Shown one piece after another: positions 609 through 16,343 of a stretch of DNA of 27,292 nt. Both the position numbers and the translations under genes were made by a program. Below the pieces are notes generated by a model, which saw only the letters and a list, made by a program, of their open reading frames with translations, was not told the origin of the DNA and did no database searches. Source of the DNA: a virus; the IMG/VR virus record IMGVR_UViG_3300050015_000136, positions 1-27,292 of that record. One strand, given 5' to 3'. Position 1 is the first letter of the stretch, and each line of letters starts with the position of its first letter.

Positions 609-1658
609 CTAATTAAAAAATTTATCCATATCATAAGTCTTTTCTGTTGTCCATCCAATAGGATCTAAAATCTTTTCAAGTGGTTTAATCATCGTGGCTT
701 CAAACATTTGATTATAATCCACATACTTATGAAGTTTGAATTCTTTTGGAAATACACCATTAAAAGCTATGACCTTATCTTGTAGTGGGTTGGGTTGTTT
801 TAAATGAACAAACTTAATTTTCTCGGAAGATGCAATAGGCGCATACTTCGATTGTAAATTCAATTTTTTCAGATAATCGTTATATAATAAAACCGCTTTT
901 ACTTGTATGGGAGTCTTTTTAATATAAAGTTCATCAGCTTCACCTGACTCCCATTTATCCAAATCATTTGCGGATCTAGGAAATGCTATTTCTTCAACTG
1001 GCAACTTCATAAACTTATTACGGGTTTCTTCAATAAATTCAGCCAATTGTTCCTGTGTTCCTGTCATCACAATATTAACAGCTTTCCTCATTGCGTCTTT
1101 CACAACTTGAGGTAAGCTAGATTTTACCATATCAAAGCCCATAATCTTCAATTTGGTAACACGTTTAGTATTTTTACTTTTACAATCATTACATGGTGGA
1201 GGCACTTCTGAATATCCTGAAAACTTACTATGACAATCTGAGCACTCAAAATAATTATCACCCTCTGAATTCCATACTTGTAAAATATAATGCTTCTTAG
1301 AACCAAATATACTTCTGTCGGCAATTACTTCACGTTTCATACTGAGAATTGGATTCTCAGCTTGCATACCATTAATATATTCACTTGTTATTTCTGCTAG
1401 AATTCTATCAATTTCAGGAATAAGTTTTTCTTTACATACCTTATTCATAAATTGAATTATCTTTACTGTATCTAATTGTTTTGTTTTCGTTACATGTTTA
1501 ACAATCTTATCCAATGATACATATACTGAATTATGTAATAAGATATCATTACCGAAAAAATTATGAGTGTCTTTTACTTCGATATCAAAGACCTCTAATT
1601 GTTTTTTACCTAAAGATTGTATGGTAAAATTTGAAGTTTTATTTAATAGTTCTTTCAC
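609..1658 (-). CDS. 43: DNA polymerase gp43B, C-terminal piece preceded by a C-intein
   Basis: This is the last piece of the broken polymerase gene (349 aa, GTG start). Residues 1-43 are an intein C-fragment: VFDIEVKDTHNFF is block F, and it ends in HN at the splice junction. Ser44 is the C-extein nucleophile, and SVYVSLDK completes motif C of a family B polymerase. Residues 44-349 are palm and thumb, with SKKHYILQV and LKIMGFDMVKSS as conserved palm motifs. C139, C142, C156 and C159 form an inserted zinc-ribbon-like knuckle absent from T4 gp43. The C-terminus MDKFFN resembles the short aromatic clamp-binding tail of T4 gp43. No in-frame start exists upstream of the GTG before a TAA, and no clear Shine-Dalgarno is visible. 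It overlaps the endonuclease gene end by 20 nt. Protein trans-splicing with the 2697-3607 product is inferred. Confidence 0.85.
   Translation of the reverse strand: MKELLNKTSNFTIQSLGKKQLEVFDIEVKDTHNFFGNDILLHNSVYVSLDKIVKHVTKTKQLDTVKIIQFMNKVCKEKLIPEIDRILAEITSEYINGMQAENPILSMKREVIADRSIFGSKKHYILQVWNSEGDNYFECSDCHSKFSGYSEVPPPCNDCKSKNTKRVTKLKIMGFDMVKSSLPQVVKDAMRKAVNIVMTGTQEQLAEFIEETRNKFMKLPVEEIAFPRSANDLDKWESGEADELYIKKTPIQVKAVLLYNDYLKKLNLQSKYAPIASSEKIKFVHLKQPNPLQDKVIAFNGVFPKEFKLHKYVDYNQMFEATMIKPLEKILDPIGWTTEKTYDMDKFFN
1182..1244 (-). other. Zinc-ribbon-like insertion in the polymerase palm
   Basis: Within the C-extein, the segment from C139 to C159 has the arrangement C-x2-C-x13-C-x2-C, with three prolines before the second pair. 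It lies between the motifs KKHY and KIMG, which in T4-type polymerases are separated by only a short linker. Zinc binding is inferred from the cysteine spacing alone. Confidence 0.6.
1530..1658 (-). other. C-terminal fragment of a split intein (43 residues)
   Basis: These codons encode the intein C-half that begins the 609-1658 ORF. Diagnostic features are block F (VFDIEVKDTHNFF) and block G (ILLHN followed by Ser). The penultimate His, terminal Asn and +1 Ser are all present, so the cleavage chemistry looks intact. It has its own start codon (GTG) and is separated from the N-half by a stop codon and a complete endonuclease gene, so splicing can only occur in trans. Confidence 0.88.
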
Positions 1659-2712
1659 GGTTTTTTATTTTCTGTAAAATATTTTTTAAAACAAAAGTAG
1701 GATTATCAGCCCAATCTGATCCCCAAATATGAATTGTATCAAAACCTTTATTACGAATTAAATTATCCTTATAAAAATCTATTCCCCATTTATCTTCTGC
1801 TAATGTTTTAGTCATGCCCCAACCTTTTAAAAAGTCTTTAGGACTATAAATTCTAGGATTACCATGATAATGATCCCCATCAAATTCAATAACTAATTTT
1901 AAATCCAAAATAACGAAATCAAATTTTTTATATGTTTTATGGATTTCATCATAAACGCCATATTCATTATTGAGTTCAGCAAAATAAATTTTGGTATATT
2001 TTTTCTTTATTTTTTGCCATATTTTCCAAAAAATAATTTGAGATATTTTAGAATATCCTGATGATACTCTAGAAATCATAATTTCAAATTTTTCTTTTCC
2101 TTTTTCTTCTCCATATTTACGTATAAAATTATCTAAGGTGAGAGCTTTTTTATTACAAACATTTTTATAAATTTTTTGTCCTTCATTTTCACCATATTTC
2201 TCTATAAAATATTTTAAAGTACATCCGGCGTCTTTTTGTTTTTGGCAATAAATTAAAAATTTATTTTTACCTTCTTTTTTACCATATTTTTTAATTAAAT
2301 TACTTTCAGTTGTAGCTCTTGAAAAATTGTATTTTTCAAATTCTTTATAGGTCATTCCATATTTTTTATTTTTATATTCAAAAGTATTCGTTATGGACTG
2401 TTTTTGTTTATAAGTTTCCCATCTTTTCTTACCTTCATTTTCACCATACATTAAAATACATTTTTCCAATGTAACCGTATTAGGTAGATTTTTTATGGAT
2501 TTAGATCTTTCATACCAATCACCTTCAACATTAAATTTTACAAAATCTAAAAGATGTATTCTATACCTTTGAGGTAATGATTTAATTCCATATTTTAACA
2601 TTTTAGAAAAGAAATCTAAACACTTCTTTTCCTGTATTTCTGTTAATTCTATTTTATTACAAGTTTTCCAAGAAAACAAATATTCTATAGGAGTTGTTAA
2701 TTTTTTAGGCAT
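1639..2712 (-). CDS. Free-standing Vsr-like (EDxHD family) homing endonuclease inside the split intein
   Basis: This 357-aa ORF lies between the two intein halves, overlapping the N-half ORF by 16 nt and the C-half ORF by 20 nt. The N-terminal two thirds carry about four copies of a 'YG-x-x-x-G-K/Q' repeat (MYGENEGKKRWE, KKYGKKEGKNKF, EKYGENEGQKIY, RKYGEEKGKEKF), a likely DNA-recognition array. The C-terminal third has FDFVILDLKLVIEFDGDHYH and then GIDFYKDNLIRNKGFD with an IHIWGSDW strand. This is the layout of the Vsr-related homing endonucleases described from fractured phage genes with split inteins. It would cut intein-less polymerase alleles and drive spread of the element. The gene is even richer in A+T and Lys/Asn codons than its neighbours, consistent with separate ancestry. 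The catalytic residue assignment is by eye. Confidence 0.82.
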   Translation of the reverse strand: MPKKLTTPIEYLFSWKTCNKIELTEIQEKKCLDFFSKMLKYGIKSLPQRYRIHLLDFVKFNVEGDWYERSKSIKNLPNTVTLEKCILMYGENEGKKRWETYKQKQSITNTFEYKNKKYGMTYKEFEKYNFSRATTESNLIKKYGKKEGKNKFLIYCQKQKDAGCTLKYFIEKYGENEGQKIYKNVCNKKALTLDNFIRKYGEEKGKEKFEIMISRVSSGYSKISQIIFWKIWQKIKKKYTKIYFAELNNEYGVYDEIHKTYKKFDFVILDLKLVIEFDGDHYHGNPRIYSPKDFLKGWGMTKTLAEDKWGIDFYKDNLIRNKGFDTIHIWGSDWADNPTFVLKNILQKIKNRERTIK

Positions 2713-3607
2713 AATTCAGACGTTTCTATTGGTGTCTGAATATATTTATAAATTAACTTATCTTGAGGCAAAACATTCTTTGGTTTAACAGGAATAATTT
2801 GTCCATCCCTTTCAATCATGAGTCCATGGTCCTCAGTAATTATAACACTTTTACCATCAACAAAAATTTGAAACATTTCTTTTTCAATACTATGTTTCAT
2901 AACATATTCGATAGGTTTTGAAATTATTAAATCATTTTCAAAAGTTTTTGTGTATGTATCTATAACTTTTTTAACAAATTTATTTTCACCATATTCCAAT
3001 ATTTCTGAAGAATAAGAATTATAAAATTCCTCTATAGTTATATTTTTTCCGTTCACATCAATTATGGTATCTCCAGTTGTAGAATCCGTATCAGAATAAA
3101 TTACGAAATCTTCTTTTTCTGTACCATATAATTTATTAAAAAAGATATTGATTTTTTTCTGGATTTGTTGAATTACAAATTGTCCTGTTTGAGTTACCGC
3201 AATTGCATTATCCAAATCGTACCATCTAAACCATTGGGAACCAAAAGCACCATACCATAACTACTTTCGTTTTCACGAACCACAATATGTGTTGTAGTCT
3301 GGACTATACCATCTTCTTTTAAGAAGGAGTAATTATAGTCTCTGAACCTTCCAAGAATTATTTTTTGGCTTGGCTGCTGATTGTCCAATCCATTTCATTG
3401 TCACACTTTGGTAGAAATGGCTCTAAGGAGTTTCCAGCAATTTATACTCTTTTCAACTTATAGTTTCCCATAAGTGCCCCATATTTTTAGGGAATTCATT
3501 AAAATTTTAGTTGATTTTTGTTTTATATCATATGCTGAAATATTACTTACTAATTGTTTTCTCTTTTCTTCTAATTCACGAATTGATAATTTTGAATAAT
3601 CTATCAA
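2697..3607 (-). CDS. 43: DNA polymerase gp43B, N-terminal piece with intron, fused to an N-intein (exons 3489-3607 and 2697-3255)
   Basis: Removal of the 233-nt intron joins two exons in frame. The product has 97 polymerase residues followed by 128 intein residues. The polymerase part opens with DYSKLSIRELEEK, then KILMNSL/YGAFGS (motif B, junction at the slash), WYDLDNA, and YSDTD, the first part of motif C. The proposed start is TTG at 3607, because AAAGGA lies 7 nt upstream and an in-frame ATG is absent. The preceding ATG at 3612 hits a stop after two codons. The total with gp43A and the C-extein is 508+97+306 = 911 aa, close to T4/RB69 gp43. The frame ends at a TAA inside the intein, so the second half must be supplied by the 609-1658 product. 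The start codon and the relation to gp43A are the uncertain points. Confidence 0.8.
2700..3083 (-). other. N-terminal fragment of a split intein (128 residues)
   Basis: The intein begins at Ser1 (STTGDTII, block A) directly after YSDTD of polymerase motif C. Block B is visible as SVIITEDHGLM, with the expected T-x-x-H. The site corresponds to the archaeal 'pol-c' position (DTD/S), where known inteins also begin with Ser and are followed by Ser. The frame ends at TAA just after the start of the endonuclease gene. The N-half is longer than a minimal one, with about 50 residues between blocks A and B that look helical and Lys-rich. Confidence 0.87.
3256..3488 (-). ncRNA. Group I intron (T4-like IA class), no ORF
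   Basis: Polymerase motif B is interrupted exactly between NSL and YG, and removing these 233 nt restores the frame. Core elements resemble the T4 td/sunY introns: a P-like element AAATTGCTGGAAACTCC, a Q-like GACAATCAGCAGCC, an R-like GTTCAGAGACTA and an S-like AAGATGGTATAGTCC. GCTG of P can pair with CAGC of Q (P4), and ACTA of R with TAGT of S (P7). The 5' exon ends CCCT, which pairs with GGGG nine nt inside the intron, leaving the usual U-G wobble at the splice site. The last intron base is G. There is no room for an endonuclease ORF, so mobility would need help in trans. Confidence 0.88.
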
Positions 3608-3672
3608 AACATTTTCCTTTCGTTTGTTCTATTTCTTTATCCGAAAATCTTATTAATTTATATACATTTTCT
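3608..3672 (-). other. Gap between gp43A and gp43B reading frames
   Basis: After the gp43A stop (TAA at 3673-3675), 65 nt precede the proposed TTG start of gp43B. The third frame is open across the gap and encodes a Lys-rich peptide (roughly ENVYKLIRFSDKEIEQ). The gp43B frame itself has several stops here. The gap carries the AAAGGA ribosome-binding site for gp43B. It corresponds to the fingertip region of RB69 gp43, the same general place where Aeromonas T4-like phages have gene 43 split into 43A and 43B. Confidence 0.6.
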
Positions 3673-5199
3673 TTAGCTTGGTTTGTTTATACGTTTTTGT
3701 ATTTCCAAATCAATTTTTTCAATTTCAATTTTCGTATCTTTAACTTCCTTTTGATATTTTTTTCGTTTACTAAACAAAACTTCTACCATTCTAGAATAAA
3801 AACTTTGTTTGTCCTTTGTATAAAAAACACCATTACAAGCTAAAGTACATTTAGATTTTAATGCCACTTCGTATGAATCTTGCCATGACTCACTCTGGTA
3901 TAAAACATCATCAGAATTTAATTTATGTTTTAACTTAACTTGTTTTGTTTCTGGACCAATATTCAAAACTCTAATCAAATTTGGATACAATGAAGCTAAA
4001 TCGAATGAGGCAACATTATAATACATACCAGGAATAGGATCTTTAACATATGCACCAACAAACTGTTCATGTTTTTCCTGATGTTCTTTTTGTGGGATAA
4101 CAATCTTCTCTTGTTTCAACCAATTGTAGATTAATATATCCCATGTTCTAGTTTGCGCTAATACATCAATATAATTAACTTTTGCGAGATACGCAACTGA
4201 TACAATCAGTTCTATCATTTTCAATTTTTGTTCTAATAAATCAGGAAGATGAACGTCTTGGATGTTATATTCAACGAATAATTGGAAATTTTTTTGATAG
4301 AATTCCTTCATTGATTCATACTTATCATGCCAATCAATTTTACCTTCACCTTTTAATTCTACTTTTGCGATGTAATCTAATTTATAATTTTCACGCGGCT
4401 CCAATTGAATTTTTCGATAAATTTGGATATAATCCAAAATTGATATACCACTTAATTCATAACATTCATGGTCAAAATTCATGAAATTAACTGTAGTAGA
4501 TTGAACGCTTCCCCAAGGAGAAAGTTTCCTTGCCGTATCTTCATCAAACAATAAAACTATCCTGTTATAAATTTGTGGGATATCAAAAAATAGACAATTC
4601 CATCCGGTTACAATATCAGGATCTAATTTTCTCCAAACACTCAAAAACCCCAATAACATTTCTTTTTCAGATTCATATTCAAAATGTGTTACATTTTTTG
4701 CGGGTTTATATCTGTTACCTTCATGATAGATTTCATCATCTATAAATGTGAAAACATAATATTCATCTTTATTGAAATCTTTTAACGTAATTACATTGAT
4801 ACGATTTTTAGCTATCTTTTCAGCATCATTAGTAAATCCATCTTCACTTTCACATTCGATATCCATTGTGAGAATTAAAAGATCTTTTAGATTATATTGG
4901 ATTTCATGTTCTGGATATTCATCTGAAATAAAAGCATATTGATATTGTGTATTTCCATACAGAGGATAATTGGTTACACCTTCATTAGATTTAACAAATT
5001 CTCTTGCCTCTTTTATAGAATCAAACTTTAAAGGCTCAACAGGTTCACCAGTTAATGTATGCCAGGTGCTCTTGTCATTACCAGGAACATACAGAGTAGG
5101 TTTGTATGGAATCTTCCTGCGCTTTCTTTTACCATTATCAATTTCTTTTAGTAATATGTTATTGCCTGAAACTTGGGAATTTGTATAGAATTTAGACAT
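3673..5199 (-). CDS. 43A: DNA polymerase gp43A: N-terminal, exonuclease and first palm/fingers part
   Basis: This is a 508-aa family B polymerase fragment. Proofreading motifs are DIE (D113, E115), NCLFFD (exo II, to D206) and YNIQD (Y311, D315). Motif A is FDLASLYPN with D400, almost the spacing of RB69 gp43 (D114, E116, D327, D411). After the first fingers helix (SKRKKYQKEVKD...) the frame ends with KRINKPS and a stop. Motifs B and C are in the next ORF, so this piece cannot polymerise alone and should pair with gp43B to form the replicative enzyme. The ATG at 5199 has no Shine-Dalgarno, but a perfect sigma70-type promoter lies 18-46 nt upstream. The divergent lysozyme gene begins on the other strand. 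Alternatives to a true gene split are two +1 frame changes or assembly errors. Confidence 0.88.
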   Translation of the reverse strand: MSKFYTNSQVSGNNILLKEIDNGKRKRRKIPYKPTLYVPGNDKSTWHTLTGEPVEPLKFDSIKEAREFVKSNEGVTNYPLYGNTQYQYAFISDEYPEHEIQYNLKDLLILTMDIECESEDGFTNDAEKIAKNRINVITLKDFNKDEYYVFTFIDDEIYHEGNRYKPAKNVTHFEYESEKEMLLGFLSVWRKLDPDIVTGWNCLFFDIPQIYNRIVLLFDEDTARKLSPWGSVQSTTVNFMNFDHECYELSGISILDYIQIYRKIQLEPRENYKLDYIAKVELKGEGKIDWHDKYESMKEFYQKNFQLFVEYNIQDVHLPDLLEQKLKMIELIVSVAYLAKVNYIDVLAQTRTWDILIYNWLKQEKIVIPQKEHQEKHEQFVGAYVKDPIPGMYYNVASFDLASLYPNLIRVLNIGPETKQVKLKHKLNSDDVLYQSESWQDSYEVALKSKCTLACNGVFYTKDKQSFYSRMVEVLFSKRKKYQKEVKDTKIEIEKIDLEIQKRINKPS

Positions 5200-5821: not shown

Positions 5822-5998
5822 TTACTTTGCAACTGGAGGAACTAAACTAATTACTAGCCAACTGCTACTATTTAAACAATTTGTGACCTCTTTACCAGTA
5901 TAAAATAAAACTACACCATTATCTCGGACAGTATAAGAATCTGCATGAAGGATAACGGGAATATATGTTCCATTTACTTGAACATTATATGTATTCAT
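5822..5998 (-). CDS. Small hypothetical protein (58 aa)
   Basis: The ATG overlaps the dUTPase TAA by one base (TAATG), a typical coupled arrangement. The predicted protein is rich in beta-branched residues (VQVNGTYIPVILHADSYTV) and probably a small beta protein, with one Cys. I do not recognise a family. It is likely co-translated with dut. Confidence 0.6.
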   Translation of the reverse strand: MNTYNVQVNGTYIPVILHADSYTVRDNGVVLFYTGKEVTNCLNSSSWLVISLVPPVAK

Positions 5999-6519
5999 TA
6001 CTTTACTCCTGTACTATTAAATCCACCTTGACGTGTTGTTTTTTGCTGCGGAGGATTATCTAACTCTTTTCCACAAAAATCATTAACTTTTTCCAACATA
6101 GCTTGGGCTAATCGCTCTCCATTTTCAATGAGAATATTCGTTTTTGTAGCATTTAAAATCACAATAAAAAGTTCATTAACATAATCAGAATCTATGATAC
6201 CTGTAGAATTTGCAAGTAGTATACCACGTTTAGTTGCTGTACCTCCGCGAATATTTACATTCACTTTATATCCTTCAGGAATATCTAAAATTAATCCGGT
6301 TGGAATAATATAGCGATATCCTGGAAGAACAAAAAGTTTATTATCAGGTGCAACATCAACTAAAAGTTCCTCATTATAATCTGAATATGCTTTAATTGCC
6401 GTACCATCAAAGAATGCTTTCAAATCAAATGCTGCCGATCCTTCAGTAGCATATCTAGGAAGTTCTACTCGTTCACTAAGACGGTAAAACCCCAATTTAA
6501 CATTATTTTCTTGCGACAC
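5998..6519 (-). CDS. dut: dUTPase (trimeric)
   Basis: The 173-aa protein hydrolyses dUTP to dUMP and pyrophosphate, keeping uracil out of phage DNA and feeding dTMP synthesis. The five trimeric-dUTPase motifs are in order: SAAFDLKA (I), IRGGTA (II, where PRSGLA is usual), STGIIDSDYVNEL (III), GERLAQAM (IV) and RQGGFNSTG (V, the C-terminal P-loop-like arm). The start is GTG, overlapping the Lys-rich gene upstream by 17 nt. The RGG in motif II in place of RSG is a small deviation, and an insertion of about 15 residues follows motif I. All catalytic positions I can judge are kept. Confidence 0.92.
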   Translation of the reverse strand: MSQENNVKLGFYRLSERVELPRYATEGSAAFDLKAFFDGTAIKAYSDYNEELLVDVAPDNKLFVLPGYRYIIPTGLILDIPEGYKVNVNIRGGTATKRGILLANSTGIIDSDYVNELFIVILNATKTNILIENGERLAQAMLEKVNDFCGKELDNPPQQKTTRQGGFNSTGVK

Positions 6520-8499: not shown

Positions 8500-8575
8500 T
8501 GGCAGGAGCGGTGAGATTCGGACTCACTAATACTGGGTTTGGAGTCCAGTGCTCTTCCAATCGAGCCTCGCTCCT
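8500..8575 (-). tRNA. tRNA-Trp (CCA)
   Basis: A 76-nt cloverleaf with a 7-bp acceptor stem (AGGAGCG/CGCTCCT), anticodon loop CTCCAAA, T-loop TCCGAAT and encoded CCA. It closely resembles the enterobacterial tRNA-Trp. The stop codon of the upstream small gene uses its first two bases. Confidence 0.95.
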
Positions 8576-8720
8576 ATTTATTTTCCTTAATAGATGCTTT
8601 TACAATATTTTCTTTAGGAAGATTGTCAACAAAATTACACGCTTCCTCGTAGGAGTCAAATGATTTAATTTTCTCTTTACCTTCAAAAAGAATGAACTGT
8701 TTATCTTTTACCTTTTCCAT
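8574..8720 (-). CDS. Small hypothetical protein (48 aa)
   Basis: ATG at 8720 gives a 48-residue Lys/Glu-rich protein (FILFEGKEKIKSFDSYEEAC). The strand-helix pattern 'F-x-S-Y-E-E-A' resembles short phage proteins of unknown function. Its TAG stop is formed by a T plus the first two bases of tRNA-Trp, so the CDS and tRNA overlap by 2 nt. Confidence 0.6.
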   Translation of the reverse strand: MEKVKDKQFILFEGKEKIKSFDSYEEACNFVDNLPKENIVKASIKENK

Positions 8721-8722
8721 AA

Positions 8723-9184
8723 TTATCGCTTCAAAATATTAATTTCAATTTGTCCAGTAGAATTAAACTTTTCGGCGTAACGAACTGTTGTCAATGTGCC
8801 ACTTCTAATAACTCTAGTGTCACTTTTAGGTGCTGCAATTAGAACTTTCTTACCAGGATAAGATTTTAAATGCTTCACCATTTCCATATCACGCATTAAA
8901 GGTGGTAAAGGCTGATATAATTCATCACATTCAAATGTTTTATCATTCGCTTCAAAACAATCTACTCTAGTTTTCTTATACGTTGAAGGATGCAAATGTC
9001 CATATTTGTTATATTTTCTAACAATACCATCAAATTCTACATCCGCACCTTCACAACAGCCATGATGCCATTCAATTTCATAACTTGAATTGTGCCATCT
9101 ATCTAAAACTTGGCACAATTCAAGTTTTTGATTTAATGACATACCTTTCCGCGTGCCTGTAAAGACAACTACAACTTTATTCAT
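8723..9184 (-). CDS. SLOG/DprA-like Rossmann-fold protein
   Basis: The 153-aa protein starts with a strand and a Gly-rich loop (VVVFTGTRKGM). HHGCCEGADVEFDGIVRK follows, the counterpart of the 'H-G-x-x-x-G-A-D' nucleotide-binding motif of the SLOG superfamily. VLIAAPKSD and RSGTLTTVRYAEK follow, matching the 'R-S-G-T-x-x-T-x-R-Y-A' motif of that group. SLOG proteins bind nucleotides or nucleotide-derived ligands; the phage members' function is not established. It starts three bases upstream of the 48-aa gene and is in the same orientation as the nucleotide-metabolism genes. Confidence 0.75.
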   Translation of the reverse strand: MNKVVVVFTGTRKGMSLNQKLELCQVLDRWHNSSYEIEWHHGCCEGADVEFDGIVRKYNKYGHLHPSTYKKTRVDCFEANDKTFECDELYQPLPPLMRDMEMVKHLKSYPGKKVLIAAPKSDTRVIRSGTLTTVRYAEKFNSTGQIEINILKR

Positions 9185-9213
9185 AATACGATTAGAATAA
9201 AGGGAATGTCAAA

Positions 9214-10032
9214 TTAGAATAAATTTAAAGCGGTACCACATTTAGGACAAAAACTTGTATCTGATGTACTTTTTTTACCACATGAAGTACATTGTTTTCT
9301 GGTTTTTACTGTTAAAGGTTTTACTACTTTAATTTGCTTTGTTCCACCAGATAACTTAATAATAAGAACTTCACTTTGTTCATGAACTGGAAACCACGAA
9401 GATTGTATAAACTTTTGGTTACTTTGGCTTCCTGCTACTGTAATTCCATTTTCTGTTGTAGATAAGTCGCACTCATTAATTGAAATACCAGGTGACGTTA
9501 CAGATTGCGTAGAAATTGTATTACAACAATAATTGGTGTCCACAGCATCAATTGATTTAAATCCTGTGGATGATGAATGTAAGTAGCCAGTACTATAGTA
9601 ATTATTCGGTAACCAATTTGGATACACATATTGTGTATCTATTGGTATCCATATGTTTGTTGAAACTACTATAGGATTAATTTTTTCGGTAAAATATTCT
9701 ATTCGGATTAATCCATCATCAGATTTAATACCTCTAAATTCCTCAACGGCTTCAGATCTTTCAATAAATTTAAATTTATTTCCAGTACTGAAATTACCAT
9801 TCTTAATAAATCTTTCCAACTCAACTTCTGAATTGGCTGGAATTACAATTTGAGTGCCATCAAATGCATCTGTTCCATCAATAGATACCTTAATTAAGAC
9901 TTTTTGTGATTTTAGATTTTTAATAAGAATTGAATATTCCGATCCAAAAGGAATATAAACTGTTTCTTGGTTTTCTCTGAGGACTTTTCCATCTACTTTA
10001 ACTACGGCAACTAAACCACTATGATACATCAT
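9214..10032 (-). CDS. Conserved phage protein with C-terminal zinc ribbon
   Basis: The 272-aa protein has an N-terminal beta-rich domain (VVKVDGKVLRENQETVYIPF..., with EVELERF near residue 70). A Ser/Thr/Asn-rich middle follows, including CDLSTTENGITVAGSQSNQ. The C-terminus is a rubredoxin-like ribbon, CTSCGKKSTSDTSFCPKCG, with four Cys. I know proteins of this layout from other phages and some bacteria, annotated as zinc-ribbon proteins of unknown role; the N-terminal part may be a beta sandwich. A strong Shine-Dalgarno (TAGGAGA) precedes the ATG pair. The start at 10032 and the one at 10029 (second Met) are both possible. Confidence 0.7.
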   Translation of the reverse strand: MMYHSGLVAVVKVDGKVLRENQETVYIPFGSEYSILIKNLKSQKVLIKVSIDGTDAFDGTQIVIPANSEVELERFIKNGNFSTGNKFKFIERSEAVEEFRGIKSDDGLIRIEYFTEKINPIVVSTNIWIPIDTQYVYPNWLPNNYYSTGYLHSSSTGFKSIDAVDTNYCCNTISTQSVTSPGISINECDLSTTENGITVAGSQSNQKFIQSSWFPVHEQSEVLIIKLSGGTKQIKVVKPLTVKTRKQCTSCGKKSTSDTSFCPKCGTALNLF

Positions 10033-10104
10033 TCTTTCTCCTAACAGTCCATCGACTAAGGACTCTTTTTAAAGTCGATTGAATCTACTACACAACTATT
10101 TATT
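10033..10104 (-). promoter_or_regulatory. Leader with late-promoter-like box and alternative hairpins
   Basis: AATAAATA (10097-10104) would start a leader of about 59 nt ending in the TAGGAG site of the zinc-ribbon gene. The leader contains ATCGACT...AGTCGAT (7 bp), which overlaps AGTCC...GGACT (5 bp). The two stems are mutually exclusive, and the second lies just ahead of the ribosome-binding site. Regulation is inferred only from this overlap. Confidence 0.35.
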
Positions 10105-10146
10105 TAAATTATATTCCTGTGGAGGCCTAAATAAAACGCTAGGATC

Positions 10147-10221
10147 TGGAGCGGGATAAGGGAATCGAGCCCTTCTCTATGGATTGGAAATCCATGGCAC
10201 CACCAGTTATACCTATCCCGC
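10147..10221 (-). tRNA. tRNA-Gly (TCC)
   Basis: 75-nt cloverleaf with perfect acceptor GCGGGAT/ATCCCGC, anticodon loop TTTCCAA and an encoded CCA after discriminator T. Bases 1-9 are also the end of the upstream CDS. Confidence 0.95.
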
Positions 10222-10416
10222 AATTTTAAATAACAAAAATCTATCTGTAAGTTTTTCGGATAATTCAATAATACCAACAGTAACATCTGTGTCTGGACTT
10301 AAACCATCATATTTATATGCCAATTCAGCATCTTGTAAAGCATTTGTAATATTTCCTACTGCAAGATGGTCTCTTAATAGGAAAAAGAAAAAATAATCCA
10401 ATAATTTATCATTCAT
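10213..10416 (-). CDS. Hypothetical protein (67 aa)
   Basis: The protein begins MNDKLLDYFFFFLLRDHLAV and continues with two predicted helices (NALQDAELAYKYDG and IIELSEKLTDRFLLF), a layout resembling small helical phage proteins. No family is recognised. The stop TAG lies within the first nine bases of tRNA-Gly, so translation and tRNA processing of this transcript compete. It is separated from the next upstream CDS by three bases. Confidence 0.65.
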   Translation of the reverse strand: MNDKLLDYFFFFLLRDHLAVGNITNALQDAELAYKYDGLSPDTDVTVGIIELSEKLTDRFLLFKIAG

Positions 10417-10419
10417 ATT

Positions 10420-10578
10420 TTATACTCCAGGACTAGAAGAAGAACCATTATCTTCCTCAGGTTCATAAATCCTTTGTTTCGCTAATTTCTCTTGAGCTAA
10501 ATCAGACCGTTCTTGCCAGTTTTCAGATTCATCTTTAGATTTTTCAATATCATCTTTTAATTCTTGTAATGTTTTCAT
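10420..10578 (-). CDS. Small acidic coiled-coil-like protein (52 aa)
   Basis: MKTLQELKDDIEKSKDESEN and the following QERSDLAQEKLAKQR are strongly charged helix, ending in an acidic Ser-rich tail. No family is recognised. Stop and start of the next gene are three bases apart, consistent with an operon. Confidence 0.6.
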   Translation of the reverse strand: MKTLQELKDDIEKSKDESENWQERSDLAQEKLAKQRIYEPEEDNGSSSSPGV

Positions 10579-10664
10579 TTATCTAATCTCTTCAAATCGC
10601 ACAATATTTCTTTTATAAATATCATTCATGTATTCACGGAATCTTTTAGAAAATTGTTTTGAGG
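10579..10664 (-). pseudogene. AT-rich coding remnant next to a GC-rich insertion
   Basis: Downstream of the GC-rich ORF, a frame reads KQFSKRFREYMNDIYKRNIV and ends at a TAA just before the 52-aa gene. It has native codon usage but no start codon except an internal ATG at 10629. It may be the C-terminal remainder of a phage gene whose 5' part was replaced by the GC-rich cassette. A 16-aa mini-gene from that ATG is the alternative. Confidence 0.35.
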
Positions 10665-10675
10665 GGGCTGCTCAT
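10665..10675. repeat. 11-bp direct repeat, copy 1 (GGGCTGCTCAT)
   Basis: Identical to 10883-10893, bracketing the GC-rich ORF 218 bp apart. Confidence 0.8.
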
Positions 10676-10893
10676 GGTTGAGCCTCGAACCACCAGCGAA
10701 TCATCACCATATCCATGAACGCGCGCCCCGTCGCACGCCACGAGTCAAACGCCCCGATGCAACGTCCCACAACGCAGACGACAGCCCAAACCGGGGCGCC
10801 GAACAGACCCGCGGAAAGCCAGAAACAGAACAGTAAAAGGCCCGCAAGCGCATATTTGAAGGCATGTGCCAGGGATTTGTAAGGGCTGCTCAT
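10672..10893 (-). CDS. GC-rich small membrane protein (73 aa), probably acquired
   Basis: The protein is hydrophobic (KYALAGLLLFCFWLSAGLFG, then APVWAVVCVVGRCIGAF), with two likely membrane-spanning segments and a Trp-rich end. Base composition and third-position GC are far higher than in the flanking genes. Its ATG overlaps the previous gene's stop (ATGA). The 11-bp start sequence ATGAGCAGCCC is repeated at its stop, suggesting that it came with a donor operon in which genes overlap. Small size and two helices would allow a holin-like role, but nothing specific supports it. Confidence 0.6.
   Translation of the reverse strand: MSSPYKSLAHAFKYALAGLLLFCFWLSAGLFGAPVWAVVCVVGRCIGAFDSWRATGRAFMDMVMIRWWFEAQP
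10883..10893. repeat. 11-bp direct repeat, copy 2 (GGGCTGCTCAT)
   Basis: Identical to 10665-10675. On the minus strand each copy reads ATGAGCAGCCC, a start-codon sequence. Confidence 0.8.
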
Positions 10894-11024
10894 AATTTCC
10901 CCGTCTCCATTGCTTTCGTCATTGCCTGTCTAATTTTCCAACCATTCTCAGTTGTAATAGGTTGAAATCTATGCTTTATCGTTTTCTCTGTAAGAGATTC
11001 TTTATCTTTGATATCATAATTCAT
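10890..11024 (-). CDS. Small hypothetical protein (44 aa)
   Basis: ATG at 11024 lies two bases after the DNA ligase stop. The protein is MNYDIKDKESLTEKTIKHRF followed by a basic helix (WKIRQAMTKAMETGKL). The last third has higher GC than the first part, as if the junction with the acquired cassette lies inside the gene. The stop overlaps the next ATG (ATGA). Confidence 0.55.
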   Translation of the reverse strand: MNYDIKDKESLTEKTIKHRFQPITTENGWKIRQAMTKAMETGKL

Positions 11025-11026
11025 AA

Positions 11027-12154
11027 TTAATCCATATCAATAGGATCTCTGAATCCTACACTTCTTCCGAATCTCGGTTTTCCATCAACTGTGTAATTTT
11101 GAAATACAACTTTCAGCCATTTTCCAATATATTTCTTACCATCTTTATACAATTTCTGTTTCATTTCCATTGTAGTCTTAGGATTAACTTCAAATTCTAT
11201 ACCATCTTTTGTAGTGCAAATCCATTTTACCGCATTCAAATGGCTTCCTTTACCGTGAGTGAAACCAACAATTTTAAATTCGGCATCTTGCGATGATTTA
11301 ACTTTTAGGAGGTCTTTAGAACGATGTCCAAAAAGATATGTACCTTTCTTTTCACGAACAATCGCACCTTCATATCCATCTTGAATATACGCATCTTCCG
11401 ATGAAAGAATTTCTTTTTCTGTAGTTGCAATTACCGTGGGAACACAAACTACTTTTTGTAATTTAGATGCATTAACAACAAAAAAATGTTGCAAATTCCA
11501 ACAACGTTTTTCCCAAGTTTCATTAGCACCTTTTTCATTTATAGGCATATCAAAAACATGATATTCTAATTGTGGTGTTTCAATATGTTTCTTTTTTGCC
11601 CATGACGTTAACGATTCAAAATCAACTTCATGAATATATAATTCGCCATCAAGTACCATTTCTTGTGGCATCACCACTTCAAGTTCTTTGATGATATGTG
11701 TTGGTGCTGTCCACTCTTTTCCACCACGGGTACCCAACACAATTCGTCCATCTTCCCAATAAGCCATGGCGCGTACACCATCTAGTTTAGGCTGAACATC
11801 TATCGGGTATTGAATATTTCCTTTTGCTTTATCTGTGAGTTTTTTGAAATCATGGGCAAGCATAGGAAGAAATATTTCTTCTTGAGCCTCTTCTAAGGTT
11901 TCACTATACTTACGTTCCACCTTATTTGTCCACATTGCTTTGGCTTCCAAAATCGCCTGTTTTTCCGGAGTGGTTTCATTAGATTTGCCAATGTTTTTAC
12001 CGGTGCATTGCACACCAGGAGTCAATTGGAGTTTTCCCCCAATTTGTCCATGACGGACATAAATTGTATCACCTTCAGTCCAGATATCCCACTGAACTAC
12101 GGCACCAGTTTTACCTTTGTGATACAACGTTGGTAATTCAAATTTCTTTTTCAT
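11027..12154 (-). CDS. ATP-dependent DNA ligase with N-terminal WGR-like domain
   Basis: The 375-aa enzyme seals nicks during replication and repair. Nucleotidyltransferase motifs are QPKLDGVR (I, adenylated K123), VLDGELY (III), YHVFDMP (IIIa), YEGAIVR (IV) and LLKVKS (V). An OB-fold follows, from FKIVGFTHGKGS to the end, with GKWLKVVFQ. Residues 8-85 (WDIWTEGDTIYVRHGQIGGK) look like a WGR domain, a DNA-binding module found in some phage and bacterial ligases and in PARPs. It is shorter than T4 gp30 (487 aa) and of a different subtype. A TTGACA/GATAAT promoter lies directly upstream and its predicted start is the A of the ATG, so the mRNA may be leaderless; no Shine-Dalgarno is seen. Confidence 0.92.
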   Translation of the reverse strand: MKKKFELPTLYHKGKTGAVVQWDIWTEGDTIYVRHGQIGGKLQLTPGVQCTGKNIGKSNETTPEKQAILEAKAMWTNKVERKYSETLEEAQEEIFLPMLAHDFKKLTDKAKGNIQYPIDVQPKLDGVRAMAYWEDGRIVLGTRGGKEWTAPTHIIKELEVVMPQEMVLDGELYIHEVDFESLTSWAKKKHIETPQLEYHVFDMPINEKGANETWEKRCWNLQHFFVVNASKLQKVVCVPTVIATTEKEILSSEDAYIQDGYEGAIVREKKGTYLFGHRSKDLLKVKSSQDAEFKIVGFTHGKGSHLNAVKWICTTKDGIEFEVNPKTTMEMKQKLYKDGKKYIGKWLKVVFQNYTVDGKPRFGRSVGFRDPIDMD

Positions 12155-12160
12155 AATATG

Positions 12161-12189
12161 ATTATCTCACAATACTCTAATGGTGTCAA
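12161..12189 (-). promoter_or_regulatory. Sigma70-type promoter for DNA ligase
   Basis: TTGACA (12184-12189) and GATAAT (12161-12166) with 17-nt spacing, preceded by TTGTGA at the extended -10 position. It overlaps no gene and lies just downstream of tRNA-Thr. Confidence 0.75.
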
Positions 12190-12199
12190 GATTAAAATA

Positions 12200-12287
12200 T
12201 GGAGCCGCGAGTTGGATTTGAACCAACGTGGACTTTCGTCGTCGGTTTACAATACCGATCCTATCAACCAGGCTAAGGGACCGCGGC
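12200..12287 (-). tRNA. tRNA-Thr (TGT) with long variable arm
   Basis: 88 nt, acceptor GCCGCGG/TCGCGGC (last pair G-T), anticodon stem TCGGT/ACCGA with loop ATTGTAA, T-arm GTTGG/CCAAC, encoded CCA. The variable region is 14 nt and can form GAC-GAAA-GTC, a class II feature normally seen in Leu, Ser and bacterial Tyr tRNAs. The D-stem has only three pairs. Shifting the loop to read GTA (Tyr) would destroy the anticodon stem, so TGT is preferred, but amino-acid identity is uncertain. Confidence 0.8.
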
Positions 12288-12293
12288 AATAAT

Positions 12294-12385
12294 ATTTGAG
12301 TGGACAGGAGATTATATTCGGAGAGAATTCCGACACTCTTCCAAAACGCCTACTACCGGTCGGTTACGCGGTTATCCACTCAAAT
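12294..12385 (-). ncRNA. Structured tRNA-like RNA, identity unknown
   Basis: A perfect 11-bp inverted repeat (ATTTGAGTGGA/TCCACTCAAAT) closes a 92-nt segment between tRNA-Thr and a small gene. Inside are ACCG...CGGT and TCGGA...TCCGA hairpins, giving a three-way junction. It sits in the tRNA cluster and has tRNA size, and GCGTT-TTGGAAG-AGTGT could form a wobble-rich anticodon arm (GGA, Ser). A normal T-arm is missing and no CCA is encoded at the expected place. It may be a decayed class II tRNA or a different small RNA. Confidence 0.4.
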
Positions 12386-12536
12386 CCTTTAAGTACTTTT
12401 CAACACTTCTAATCCATACTAATAAATCTGCTGCTTGGTTTACTGTCAATTTTACAACTTTATCATATGCATAAGAATTTTCTAACATCTTAATAGCCAA
12501 TTCAGCATGAGCCGTTCTTTGGATAATCATTGACAT
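12372..12536 (-). CDS. Small helical protein (54 aa)
   Basis: The frame begins with MSMIIQRTAHAELAIKMLEN and continues as amphipathic helix to KYLKDLSG. AAAGGA lies just upstream of the first of two close ATGs. It overlaps the end of the zinc-ribbon gene by 35 nt in another frame, and its last four codons form part of the 11-bp stem of the tRNA-like RNA. No family is recognised. Confidence 0.55.
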   Translation of the reverse strand: MSMIIQRTAHAELAIKMLENSYAYDKVVKLTVNQAADLLVWIRSVEKYLKDLSG

Positions 12537-12717
12537 AAAATCCTTTACCTACAAAACGTAGCGAAGGTACGGAAATTAGCCGCTCAACAGGTCCATGGCA
12601 ATAAGCAAATTTTGAATTATTTACATGTACTCTTTCCACTAAAGGTTCTTCATCCATATGTTGAAATACTTCAAATTTAGATCCACATGTAACACAAGAA
12701 TAATCATAATACGGCAT
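12502..12717 (-). CDS. FmdB-type zinc ribbon protein
   Basis: A 71-aa protein that begins MPYYDYSCVTCGSKFEVFQH, the typical FmdB/putative regulatory protein start with a C-x2-C pair. A single later Cys near residue 39 (FAYCHGP) replaces the usual second pair, and one more Cys is terminal, so zinc may be bound incompletely. 'RLISVPSLRFVGKGFYVNDY' is the conserved C-terminal part (phenylalanine-Gly-Phe-Tyr motif). FmdB-like small ribbons occur widely in phages; a nucleic-acid role is presumed. It overlaps both neighbours. Confidence 0.75.
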   Translation of the reverse strand: MPYYDYSCVTCGSKFEVFQHMDEEPLVERVHVNNSKFAYCHGPVERLISVPSLRFVGKGFYVNDYPKNGSC

Positions 12718-12961
12718 GTTTATCCTTCAATTCTATTCCGTGAATTTCAGGAGCACCAAATTTATTATATTGAAGCTCTTTAGCTCTATATGAATCCACA
12801 TCATGTTGTTTAAAGGGTAAATTTTGACATCTGAACAAAACACCAACAACTTTTCCTTGATAAGTTTCTATATCCAAGGAATAACCACCATGAATAGTTC
12901 CACCATCTCCATAATATCTATGTCCTAATTGTTTAAATAATTTATTAATTTTTTCCCACAT
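12704..12961 (-). CDS. Hypothetical protein (85 aa)
   Basis: Begins with a basic helix (MWEKINKLFKQLGHRYYGDG), followed by beta-rich sequence (YSLDIETYQGKVVGVLFRCQ). It overlaps the FmdB-like gene by 14 nt. No recognised family. A TATAAATA box lies about 58 nt upstream. Confidence 0.6.
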   Translation of the reverse strand: MWEKINKLFKQLGHRYYGDGGTIHGGYSLDIETYQGKVVGVLFRCQNLPFKQHDVDSYRAKELQYNKFGAPEIHGIELKDKHAVL

Positions 12962-12998
12962 GTTGATAGATTTCAGTTTCAGATTTCATAATATTAAA

Positions 12999-13073
12999 TT
13001 AAGGCTTCAGTCTATAACTATTTATATGTTTGGGCTTTCTCTTACCAGATGATATAGAGGTTATCCTATACAT
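12999..13073 (-). CDS. Possible very small basic protein (24 aa)
   Basis: ATG at 13073 preceded by AAAAAGG gives MYRITSISSGKRKPKHINSY plus four residues, strongly basic. It is short enough to be chance, and the late promoter box lies inside it. Confidence 0.3.
   Translation of the reverse strand: MYRITSISSGKRKPKHINSYRLKP
13019..13026 (-). promoter_or_regulatory. T4-type late promoter (TATAAATA)
   Basis: Exact late core; the predicted start near 13013 gives a leader of about 52 nt for the 85-aa gene and the FmdB-like gene. Confidence 0.5.
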
Positions 13074-13105
13074 CTACCTTTTTAAAATGGGATTTATATA
13101 CTTAA

Positions 13106-13384
13106 CTACACCGGGTTGATCGAAACACTCACGGACTGGTTCGCCCCAGCCTTCGTGTCCCAATCACTGAATCCCATGTGCCCATAGGCGATTACGGCCA
13201 CAGTTCTTGCCGGGTCAAACGTTGCTAGGCACTGGTCAATACTGTCACGCAGCATTTCGACAGTGCGTCGTTCACCGTCATCGTTGAGTCCGGCTGGTTT
13301 TTCCGCAAGCGGACCTTTGAACTGCTCATCAAGACGGCCTCGAACCTCTGCCTGGGTTCCCGTCGCACTTACACTCCAACTCAT
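13106..13384 (-). CDS. GC-rich hypothetical protein (92 aa), probably acquired
   Basis: Sequence MSWSVSATGTQAEVRGRLDE and later TVEMLRDSIDQCLATFDP, then VAVIAYGHMGF and a beta end. Base composition is visibly far higher in GC than the neighbours, with many G/C third positions. AAAAGGAG precedes the start at about 12 nt. A 12-codon ORF (13384-13419) overlaps the start (ATGA) and may be a leader peptide. The family is not recognised, though small proteins with this N-terminus are common in high-GC phages in my experience. Confidence 0.65.
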   Translation of the reverse strand: MSWSVSATGTQAEVRGRLDEQFKGPLAEKPAGLNDDGERRTVEMLRDSIDQCLATFDPARTVAVIAYGHMGFSDWDTKAGANQSVSVSINPV

Positions 13385-13441
13385 TTGTTTTCAATCTCCT
13401 TTTCTGTTTGTGTAGTCATGTATTATAATTACCTTTAAAAT

Positions 13442-13528
13442 TGGTGGCTAAGGAGAGACTTGAACTCTCACGCCCCGAAGGACAACGGATTTTGAGTCCG
13501 CACGGTCTGCCAATTCCACCACTTAGCC
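13442..13528 (-). tRNA. tRNA-Leu (CAA)
   Basis: 87-nt class II tRNA with acceptor GGCTAAG/CTTAGCC, anticodon loop CTCAAAA, variable arm with a CTTCGG loop and encoded CCA after A73. Confidence 0.93.
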
Positions 13529-13540
13529 AAAATCATAGCT

Positions 13541-13708
13541 TTACAGGATGTCTGGCTCAAGAAGTTCCAAATCGGAGACGCTGGCAATGTCCGCAGCGGT
13601 TGACAAATACGAGTTTTCGTATTCTTCCGGCCAGCCTTTCTCACGGCACTCAGCCGCGTGTTGGAGGCATTTTGCACCAAACGCCCGGACCTGTTCTACT
13701 GTACTCAT
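13541..13708 (-). CDS. GC-rich small protein (55 aa), probably acquired
   Basis: MSTVEQVRAFGAKCLQHAAE followed by CREKGWPEEYENSYLSTAAD, two helices with two Cys. I chose ATG 13708 because AAAGGGA lies 9 nt upstream. An upstream in-frame ATG at 13744 directly follows the TAG of the preceding mini-gene. Codon usage matches the other GC-rich cassettes. Confidence 0.6.
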   Translation of the reverse strand: MSTVEQVRAFGAKCLQHAAECREKGWPEEYENSYLSTAADIASVSDLELLEPDIL

Positions 13709-13744
13709 GATATAATTCCCTTTTGAATCGGTCGCTATACTCAT

Positions 13745-13813
13745 CTATAGAATTCCCAATTCAAGCGGCCCATCGTCGCCGTCGTATTCTGGCTCTTCTG
13801 ACTCCCTTGTCAC
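13745..13813 (-). CDS. GC-rich mini-gene (22 aa, GTG start)
   Basis: The GTG overlaps the stop of the gene before it (GTGA) and a GGAGG element lies upstream. The product is acidic (TRESEEPEYDGDDGPLELG). It shares the GC-rich composition of its neighbours and could be a small regulatory peptide, but also a chance ORF. Confidence 0.4.
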   Translation of the reverse strand: MTRESEEPEYDGDDGPLELGIL

Positions 13814-14007
13814 TTCTTCAAACCTCCATCAATCAATGAGCCCCTTGTGGGCGTATGCCTTTCCAGGGCGGTGGACAAATACCTAAGCATTGGGTCGCCG
13901 TCGATTTGCAGTTGAGTGTATTGACGGAGGACTTCTTTAATCCCCTCATCGTCCCGAGGCATCGCTATTGCGCCCAATGCCTGAGATACAGGTTGATCGT
14001 AGTTCAT
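13810..14007 (-). CDS. GC-rich small protein (65 aa), probably acquired
   Basis: MNYDQPVSQALGAIAMPRDD then EVLRQYTQLQIDGDPMLRYL, one helical domain. GGAGAG, located in the end of the upstream coiled-coil gene, sits 5 nt before ATG 14007; an in-frame ATG at 14019 is less well placed. Composition changes sharply at this gene's start. Confidence 0.6.
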   Translation of the reverse strand: MNYDQPVSQALGAIAMPRDDEGIKEVLRQYTQLQIDGDPMLRYLSTALERHTPTRGSLIDGGLKK

Positions 14008-14008
14008 A

Positions 14009-14398
14009 TTACTCTCCAAACTGTTCGGCGCTCAATTCATCGCAGAGGATATCTTCTACTTTAGAAATTAATACATCTACTTCATCCTTCACACGATCTA
14101 AAATATTCGATAATGCTGCATCCAATTTTTCAGAAACATCATCATTCTTTTGGGTTGCATCTTCTTCCAACCGATCAATTGTTTCTTCTAAATCCTTGTT
14201 TTCATCTTCCAAAGATTGCACTCGTTCCTCTAAATCAGCAACATCGGTAGCTTCATCTTCAGAATTCTCACCATAATCTAACCGTTCCTGCAACTCAACG
14301 GATTGTTTCTTTTCTGCAAGCAATTCTGCCTTTACTTTACGAAGTTCCGCACGTAAATTGGCGTTATCATATTTATATTCTTCATTCGTCTTTGTCAT
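14009..14398 (-). CDS. Coiled-coil protein (129 aa)
   Basis: MTKTNEEYKYDNANLRAELR followed by a long uninterrupted heptad pattern of Leu, Glu and Lys to about residue 100 (VADLEERVQSLEDENKDLEE), then ILDRVKDEVDVLISKVEDIL. Acidic overall. Probably an oligomeric rod; function unknown. Start ATG 14398 is preferred over the upstream in-frame GTG/ATG codons because it follows GAGAATAAAG. Confidence 0.65.
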   Translation of the reverse strand: MTKTNEEYKYDNANLRAELRKVKAELLAEKKQSVELQERLDYGENSEDEATDVADLEERVQSLEDENKDLEETIDRLEEDATQKNDDVSEKLDAALSNILDRVKDEVDVLISKVEDILCDELSAEQFGE

Positions 14399-14419
14399 CT
14401 TTATTCTCACTTTCAAGTT

Positions 14420-14498
14420 TGGAGCAGTAGAGTGGATTTGAACCGCTGGTTTTAGGTTTTGCAGACCTAAGCCTTTGACCGGACTTGGCGACTACTGC
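14420..14498 (-). tRNA. tRNA-Cys (GCA)
   Basis: 79 nt, acceptor GCAGTAG/CTACTGC, anticodon stem TAGGT/ACCTA with loop CTGCAAA, T-arm with one mismatch, discriminator T, encoded CCA. The D-loop is somewhat long. Confidence 0.9.
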
Positions 14499-14511
14499 AA
14501 TTTAAAATTTA

Positions 14512-14592
14512 TGGTGGACCACTAGGGATTTGAACCCTACTGAAATTCTCCGTGCAAGGGAGACGGCCACCCCCCAAGCAGCCCCGCAGCCC
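14512..14592 (-). tRNA. tRNA-Ala (TGC)
   Basis: 81 nt. Anticodon stem TCTCC/GGAGA with loop CTTGCAC, T-arm TAGGG/CCCTA, acceptor GGGCTGC/GTGGTCC with three wobble pairs, including G3-U70, the tRNA-Ala identity element. D-stem GGCT/GGCC, encoded CCA. Confidence 0.88.
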
Positions 14593-14599
14593 TTAAATT

Positions 14600-14676
14600 T
14601 GGTAGCCGATCCCAGACTCGAACTGGGTACCTAATCCATGTAACGGATTCTCTCTACCAACTGAGATTAATCGGCT
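14600..14676 (-). tRNA. tRNA-Val (TAC)
   Basis: 77 nt, acceptor AGCCGAT/ATCGGCT, anticodon stem AATCC/GGATT with loop GTTACAT, T-arm CCCAG/CTGGG, discriminator A, encoded CCA. Its first two bases complete the stop codon of the upstream CDS. Confidence 0.93.
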
Positions 14677-14893
14677 AAATTGGTACCTTTCTAGGCTCAT
14701 GCAAATAACGCATTGCCTTCGACATCCATTCACGACTTGGTTTTGCTCGGAGTGTATGTTCTCCTTTTTCCGTTCCTTTACGTATTTCATCCCTATGATG
14801 TTCTGGAATTGCAAACCAACTCTTAACACAAAACAAATTTCGTCCTGATGCTTTGCTATCACATTCAAAATCCGCACAGTTATGTAATGCCAT
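14675..14893 (-). CDS. Hypothetical protein (72 aa)
   Basis: MALHNCADFECDSKASGRNL, FCVKSWFAIPEHHRDEIRKG and LRAKPSREWMSKAMRYL. The first 25 residues carry three Cys and may bind a metal. The 'REW-x-x-K-A-M-R-Y-L' helix reminds me of small phage proteins with unknown function. Its TAG is T plus the first two bases of tRNA-Val. The other frame here is read as a shadow. Confidence 0.6.
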   Translation of the reverse strand: MALHNCADFECDSKASGRNLFCVKSWFAIPEHHRDEIRKGTEKGEHTLRAKPSREWMSKAMRYLHEPRKVPI

Positions 14894-14905
14894 TAATATT
14901 TTCCT

Positions 14906-15130
14906 TTACTTAAATGAAAGAATTTCACCAGTCAAAAATGCATGTTGTTCCTGGGTCAACCTATAATGACCGGGAGGTACAATTTTTCTATCAGCATCTT
15001 TAACTTTTCCAGCTTCTACTTGTTCCGCCCAATTAATAATGGTTGGTTTAGGTAGATATTTGGAAAACACTTCTTCATCCATAGCAAAAAACTTTGCTAA
15101 GATCTGTAATGAACGATTTAAATTTAACAT
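14906..15130 (-). CDS. Hypothetical protein (74 aa)
   Basis: MLNLNRSLQILAKFFAMDEE then KYLPKPTIINWAEQVEAGKV, mostly helical and neutral. It lies 12 nt upstream of the 72-aa gene and directly after the promoter at 15154-15182, so it is the first gene of a short unit that continues into tRNA-Val, -Ala and -Cys. Confidence 0.6.
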   Translation of the reverse strand: MLNLNRSLQILAKFFAMDEEVFSKYLPKPTIINWAEQVEAGKVKDADRKIVPPGHYRLTQEQHAFLTGEILSFK

Positions 15131-15153
15131 AATCTAATTAAACTCTTTCTTCA

Positions 15154-15182
15154 ATTATAACACAAATTTTTAAATATGTCAA
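15154..15182 (-). promoter_or_regulatory. Sigma70-type promoter upstream of the 74-aa gene and tRNAs
   Basis: TTGACA (15177-15182) and TATAAT (15154-15159) with 17-nt spacing; TTGTGT precedes the -10. It overlaps the end of the nucleotidyltransferase gene by 4 nt. Confidence 0.8.
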
Positions 15183-15931: not shown

Positions 15932-15938
15932 ATTTCCT

Positions 15939-16277
15939 TTACCTACTATAATATCCTGCCATTACCTGTCGGACTTCAGTTTCGTTATATCCATCGTACA
16001 ACATTTTTTCTGTTGCCCGGTGCAAAGAAAGCAATCTTCCTGTTTCTTTCTTATAATGATCCGAAGGGTGAGTATAAGATGTTCCAAAAAATTCATTTGC
16101 AGGAACATTCATTTCATTAACTCCAATACTAACCGCACAATCGGTACTTCCTTGTGTGTATCGGATGCTATTTAGAGTTGATACCAAAGAATTATTTGGT
16201 GTCACGTTAACATTAGGTAAGTTATGCCGGAATCTAATGACAACCTTGCCTAAATTTTTCGTTTCAAATTTAATCAT
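15939..16277 (-). CDS. Hypothetical protein (112 aa)
   Basis: Starts MIKFETKNLGKVVIRFRHNL, an extended beta region with PNVNVTPNNSLVSTLNSI, and ends in helix with SLHRATEKMLYDGYNET. It lies 8 nt upstream of the nucleotidyltransferase gene. No family recognised. Confidence 0.65.
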   Translation of the reverse strand: MIKFETKNLGKVVIRFRHNLPNVNVTPNNSLVSTLNSIRYTQGSTDCAVSIGVNEMNVPANEFFGTSYTHPSDHYKKETGRLLSLHRATEKMLYDGYNETEVRQVMAGYYSR

Positions 16278-16333: not shown

Positions 16334-16343
16334 CTAAACTTTT

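What the first reader, a model, noticed from the sequence alone, without database searches (positions are those of the whole stretch)
609..5199. DNA polymerase gene broken three ways: split gene, group I intron and split intein with its own endonuclease
The same family B polymerase is encoded as gp43A (3673-5199), an intron-containing N-part of gp43B ending in an N-intein (2697-3607), and a C-intein plus C-part (609-1658), with an endonuclease gene between the intein halves. Interruptions fall in the fingertip, motif B and motif C, the most conserved catalytic coding sequence. Assembly gives 508+97+306 = 911 residues, the size of T4/RB69 gp43, so all pieces are accounted for. Each type of interruption is known singly (Aeromonas phages for 43A/43B, fractured genes with split inteins); I know of no case combining all three in one polymerase gene.
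Basis: partly seen in the sequence, partly recalled or inferred. Interest (0 to 1): 0.95.

Follow-up and report, generated by a model that had tools for sequence, protein, structure and literature searches.

The report
Phage DNA polymerase gene interrupted three ways
A virus of bacteria carries its DNA-copying enzyme gene as three separately translated pieces, one of which also holds a self-splicing RNA intron; this is real, but the same combination is already on record in several Aeromonas viruses, so the gene is a further, partly independent case and not a first.

Summary
The minus strand carries gp43A (508 aa), a 65-nt spacer, then gp43B cut by a 233-nt group I intron (Rfam RF00028, 65.8 bits) and by a split intein at motif C. 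A Vsr-like endonuclease gene lies between the intein halves. The extein parts (508+97+306 = 911 aa) align with RB69/T4 gp43. A second contig is identical over 9.3 kb. Close relatives have an uninterrupted gene; one (L009) has the break and the intron but no intein.

The novelty claim fails. At least six Aeromonas phages (Aes508, Aes512, Aes516, Aes517, Aes144, AS-gz) combine a 43A/43B break, a group I intron and a split intein in gene 43; Aes508's GenBank record says so in its notes. What is new is modest: the intron lies 11 nt upstream of the Aes508 intron site and does not match the Aeromonas introns by DNA search, in a gp43A only about 32% identical to theirs. So the triple arrangement arose at least twice as far as the intron is concerned. 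The break-plus-intron segment also looks exchanged between relatives. Verdict: new member of a known kind.

The parts
3673..5199 (-). gp43A, N-terminal half of a T4-type family B DNA polymerase (508 aa), ending on the first fingers helix
   Evidence: Pfam DNA_pol_B_exo1 E 4e-23 and DNA_pol_B E 1e-15; phrog_2062/phrog_262; model matches RB69 gp43, Foldseek E 3.5e-35; helix 467-504 runs almost to its C-terminus
3608..3672 (-). 65-nt intercistronic spacer separating 43A from 43B
   Evidence: stop codons in the sequence; uninterrupted gene in relatives
3489..3607 (-). gp43B exon 1 (TTG start), ending at NS-CT in motif B
   Evidence: start context
3256..3488 (-). group I intron, 233 nt, without a homing endonuclease gene of its own
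   Evidence: RF00028 65.8 bits; P1 CCCU/GGGG and P10 GUAU/AUAU, last P10 pair U-A here and C-G in L009; folding z-score -2.7
3084..3255 (-). gp43B exon 2, N-extein up to YSDTD (motif C)
2697..3083 (-). N-intein (128 aa plus stop), Ser1, block B TEDH
   Evidence: TIGR01445 E 3e-6; 9hth alignment; alignment with Aes123, CP21, L031
1639..2712 (-). Vsr-like (EDxHD type) putative homing endonuclease, 357 aa, overlapping both intein halves
   Evidence: phrog_22677 E 3e-69; C-terminal domain of the model matches Vsr 1cw0 (Z 10.4, rmsd 3.5, 119 aligned) and I-Bth0305I catalytic domain 3r3p (Z 10.0, rmsd 2.5, 93 aligned); homologue at the same place in Aeromonas phages
1530..1658 (-). C-intein (43 aa, GTG start), ending LLHN with Ser at +1
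   Evidence: TIGR01443 E 4.5e-7
609..1529 (-). gp43B C-extein (306 aa plus stop): rest of palm, and thumb
   Evidence: phrog_262 E 2e-78

Best explanation
This is gene 43, the replicative DNA polymerase gene of a T4-type phage, carrying three mobile or formerly mobile interruptions. The steps, all inferred from sequence here: (1) 43A and 43B are translated as separate proteins that join at the fingers to form one enzyme; (2) the group I intron removes itself from the 43B transcript so that motif B is read through; (3) the N- and C-intein halves, translated from overlapping cistrons on either side of the endonuclease gene, bind and ligate the two 43B parts at motif C (DTD|S); (4) the Vsr-like endonuclease cuts intein-less alleles and spreads the intein cassette. 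Steps 1 and 3 are reported for relatives (phage 25 43A/43B co-purify with activity, PMC2988022; the Aes123 PolB1 intein trans-splices, PMC11923092). The arrangement is of the same kind as in Aeromonas phage Aes508 and others, but with an intron gained independently at a site 11 nt away.
For: Pieces align end to end with RB69/T4 gp43. Intron model match and consistent P1/P10 with a compensatory pair in L009. Intein splice residues present (Ser1, TxxH, final HN, Ser+1). Vsr/I-Bth0305I fold of the endonuclease. Empty sites for all three interruptions in L008, L010-L022, L044. Intermediate L009 with break and intron only. Same triple in six Aeromonas phages; intron after nucleotide 8 of the NSLYG codons here and 19 in Aes508. 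Identical second contig.
Against: No RNA or protein data. The intein halves lack the opposite charges of the Aes123 halves (net -6 and -1 here, +8 and -11 there), so fast association is not assured. 43B starts with TTG. Window and L009 are not resolved as sisters in the tree, so the order of gains is inferred.
Confidence: 0.88

Rival explanations
1. The three interruptions are assembly or sequencing artefacts and the real gene is intact.
For: Metagenome contig; no isolate.
Against: Identical second contig over 9.3 kb; each interruption is a complete, functional-looking element with precise borders; the same layout exists in named isolates.
Confidence: 0.02
2. The gene is decaying: the split intein or the intron no longer works and the phage depends on another polymerase.
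For: Charge segregation of the intein halves is missing; only 27 kb of the genome is held, so another polymerase cannot be excluded.
Against: All extein reading frames are open and the assembled protein keeps the conserved polymerase motifs; intein catalytic residues intact; guide sequence and exon covary at P10 between two phages.
Confidence: 0.07
3. Collaborative mobility, an addition to the best explanation: the intein's endonuclease also carries along the neighbouring ORF-less intron and the 43A/43B break, so that the three interruptions can move as one cassette.
For: The intron has no endonuclease gene and lies 172 nt from the intein site; the break-to-intron stretch (residues 481-547) is 64-79% identical to L009 but only 35-59% to L008/L010, while residues 1-300 are nearer to L008; the intron is 89% identical to that of L009 against 72-84% for coding DNA. 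Collaborative homing is described for other phages (PMC10448857).
Against: L009 has break and intron but no intein or endonuclease, so these two can occur without it; structural constraint could also keep the intron similar.
Confidence: 0.2

Closest known systems
Gene 43 of Aeromonas phages Aes508, Aes512, Aes517, Aes144, AS-gz
   Same: 43A/43B break at the fingertip, group I intron in 43B next to motif B, split intein at motif C, VSR-like endonuclease gene overlapping both intein halves by about 16-20 nt
   Different: Intron site 11 nt further downstream in Aes508 and no DNA match between the introns; gp43A only about 32% identical; some carry an additional GIY-YIG endonuclease between 43A and 43B
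Gene 43 of Aeromonas phage Aes516
   Same: 43A/43B break, intron and split intein
   Different: No endonuclease gene between the intein halves
Aes123 PolB1 split intein (PMC11923092; PDB 9hth)
   Same: Same insertion site, Ser1/Ser+1, overlapping VSR gene; IntN 41% and IntC 61% identical
   Different: Opposite charges of the halves in Aes123 not found here; one Cys in the N-intein tail here
Gene 43 of phages 25 and 44RR (Petrov, Ratnayaka and Karam 2010, read through PMC2988022 and PMC2993671)
   Same: 43A/43B break (in 44RR by an untranslated spacer); phage 25 also has a group I intron in 43B without its own endonuclease gene
   Different: No intein mentioned in the passages read

Membership tests
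Group I intron | Conserved core matching the family covariance model | tested here: met
   RF00028 65.8 bits, gathering score 50, full model 1-253
Group I intron | 5' exon ends in U paired to G of the internal guide; intron ends in G; P10 with the 3' exon | tested here: met
   CCCU/GGGG, last base G, P10 GUAU/AUAU; the L009 P10 differs by a compensatory pair
Group I intron | Self-splicing | not testable with these tools
   needs in vitro transcription or RT-PCR
Split intein at PolB motif C | Nucleophile at position 1, TxxH in block B, HN at the end, nucleophile at +1 | tested here: met
   S1, TEDH, LLHN, S+1; TIGR01445, TIGR01443
Split intein at PolB motif C | Halves on separate reading frames | tested here: met
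   stop at 2697, GTG start at 1658, endonuclease in another frame between
Split intein at PolB motif C | Trans-splicing activity | not testable with these tools
   needs co-expression; the charge pattern of Aes123 (not a defining feature) is absent here
Vsr-like / EDxHD homing endonuclease | Vsr-type nuclease fold | tested here: met
   Z 10.4 to Vsr 1cw0 and 10.0 to I-Bth0305I 3r3p, on a model of modest confidence (pLDDT 58.5 overall, 77-89 near the C-terminus); Pfam MTES_1575 E 5e-6 but below its cut-off
Vsr-like / EDxHD homing endonuclease | Cleaves the intein-less allele | not testable with these tools
   needs protein and substrate
T4-type gp43 polymerase, 43A/43B form | Two gene products that together cover gp43, meeting at the fingers | tested here: met

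The most novel reading that the evidence does not exclude
A second, independent assembly of the same triple interruption, in which one intein-borne Vsr-like endonuclease mobilises the neighbouring ORF-less intron and the gene break together with the intein.
Probability: 0.2. Interest if true: 0.55.

Novelty: new member of a known kind. Interest (0 to 1): 0.36.

Why it matters
It shows that the gene 43 layout of Aeromonas phages is not a single accident: a distant T4-type phage has the same kinds of interruption in the same three neighbourhoods of the polymerase, with an intron gained at a different nucleotide. Close relatives with no interruption, or with break and intron only, offer a natural series for working out how such interruptions accumulate. 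It also adds a new Ser1/Ser+1 split intein.

Tried and rejected
The default Rfam scans of the whole window and of L009 missed the intron; scans of short stretches found it (versus 6, 65). A sequence search of the endonuclease against solved structures gave only chance matches; the fold comparison was informative. A DNA search with the intron found only core matches in unrelated phages, none in Aeromonas phages. Scans with the endonuclease and with an intron core pattern found only this phage's second contig and L009 in IMG/VR. Joining of 43A and 43B by frameshifting was rejected for the window (65-nt spacer with stops); for L009, where 43A ends within ATGTTTTTGA, a slip or a miscounted T run cannot be excluded. 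Dassa 2009 (fractured genes) and Petrov 2010 are not held in the library. The gp43 tree did not resolve window and L009 as sisters.

Full report
What is there. On the minus strand lie five open stretches: 43A (5199-3673), a short 43B exon 1 (3607-3489), a second exon fused to an N-intein (3255-2697), an endonuclease gene (2712-1639), and a C-intein fused to the rest of the polymerase (1658-609). Joining exon 1 and exon 2 at CCCT|GTATGG restores NSLYGAFGSQWFRWYDLDNA, the motif B region; removing the intein restores YSDTD-SVYVSL, motif C. The extein total is 508+97+306 = 911 residues. That protein matches RB69 gp43 at E 6e-124 and T4 gp43 along residues 1-910. Uninterrupted close relatives are 885-892 residues; the surplus sits at the fingertip, where the window and L009 share about 30 extra residues.

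The intron. Rfam's group I model matches at 65.8 bits over its full length. The borders follow from the guide sequence: the last four exon bases CCCU pair with GGGG, and the first four of the next exon, GUAU, with AUAU. In L009 the fourth pair of P10 is C-G instead of U-A, a compensatory change that leaves the tyrosine codon synonymous. The L009 intron scores 63.4 bits and sits at the same position. The intron is too short for an endonuclease gene.

The intein. The N-half begins at Ser (STTGDT), the C-half ends LLHN before Ser+1; block B has TEDH. Both halves pass the NCBIfam splicing-region models, and the joined halves match the solved Aes123 PolB1 intein at E 6e-30. The endonuclease gene overlaps the N-half by 16 nt and the C-half by 20 nt, nearly as in Aes123 (16 and 17 nt). 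The endonuclease's C-terminal domain resembles Vsr and the catalytic domain of the homing endonuclease I-Bth0305I (Z about 10), on a model of modest confidence. One difference from Aes123: its halves carry opposite charges (+8, -11), those here do not (-6, -1).

The break. 43A ends on a long helix (467-504 in the model) that corresponds to the first fingers helix of RB69 gp43 (model match), and 43B begins just before the second; both have extended tips. That these helices pair and hold the two chains together is my inference.

Is it real. A second contig is identical over 9,324 bases. Related phages, most of them 61-75% identical, have one continuous gene (L008, L010-L022, L044); L009 has the break and the intron and a continuous motif C.

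Is it new. No. Aeromonas phage Aes508 (JN377894) is annotated with split polymerase gp43A, a GIY-YIG endonuclease, gp43B-1 'including group I intron and N-intein', a VSR-domain protein and gp43B-2 with C-intein. Aes516, Aes512, Aes517, Aes144 and AS-gz have the same three interruptions, differing in the endonucleases; Rfam confirms the intron in each. Aes123 and Aes509 lack the intron. Reviews of 2010 already describe the 43A/43B break of phages 25 and 44RR, the activity of the phage 25 pair, and the intron of phage 25 gene 43B (PMC2988022; PMC2993671). Trans-splicing of the Aes123 PolB1 intein is measured in PMC11923092.

What differs. Counted from the Asn codon of NSLYG, the intron follows nucleotide 8 here and nucleotide 19 in Aes508, 11 nt apart, and a DNA search with this intron did not list the Aeromonas introns. 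I conclude that the introns were gained independently. The split inteins and their endonucleases are homologous, so those share an origin or moved between lineages. Along gp43 the window is closer to the uninterrupted L008 over residues 1-300, but closer to L009 at 481-547, and the introns are 89% identical against 72-84% for coding DNA. This fits exchange of the break-plus-intron segment between relatives with co-conversion of flanking coding DNA; structural constraint is an alternative for the intron itself. The tree does not decide.

Verdict.

Noticed in passing
window about 1247-1170 (-): A zinc-ribbon-like insert (ECSDCHSKF...PPPCNDCKSKN) in the C-part of gp43, absent from the aligned RB69 sequence; the residues around its end recur in close relatives L008-L016 and L009.
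   Followed up: partly
L042:155-2249: A RecA/KaiC-like ATPase gene that ends in an N-intein, followed by a relative of the same endonuclease (982-2103) and a C-intein match: the same kind of cassette in another gene; a second C-intein match lies at 5986-6075.
   Followed up: no
L009:5460-5490: The 43A stop overlaps the 43B start in ATGTTTTTGA; the break in L009 depends on the length of one T run, and a -1 slip there would fuse the two.
   Followed up: partly
window 2697 to 1658 (-): N-intein and C-intein lie in the same reading frame (1041 nt apart) with the endonuclease in another frame; the same holds in Aes123 by its annotated coordinates (1032 nt).
   Followed up: partly
window 8503-19692 (-): Nine tRNA genes, with an RlaP-like gene (15179-15931) and an RNA ligase (18706-19692) nearby: a possible tRNA repair set.
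   Followed up: no
L023, L024, L025: gp43 with a 43A/43B frame break and a split intein, but a 1.6-kb insert without similarity to this endonuclease between the halves.
   Followed up: no
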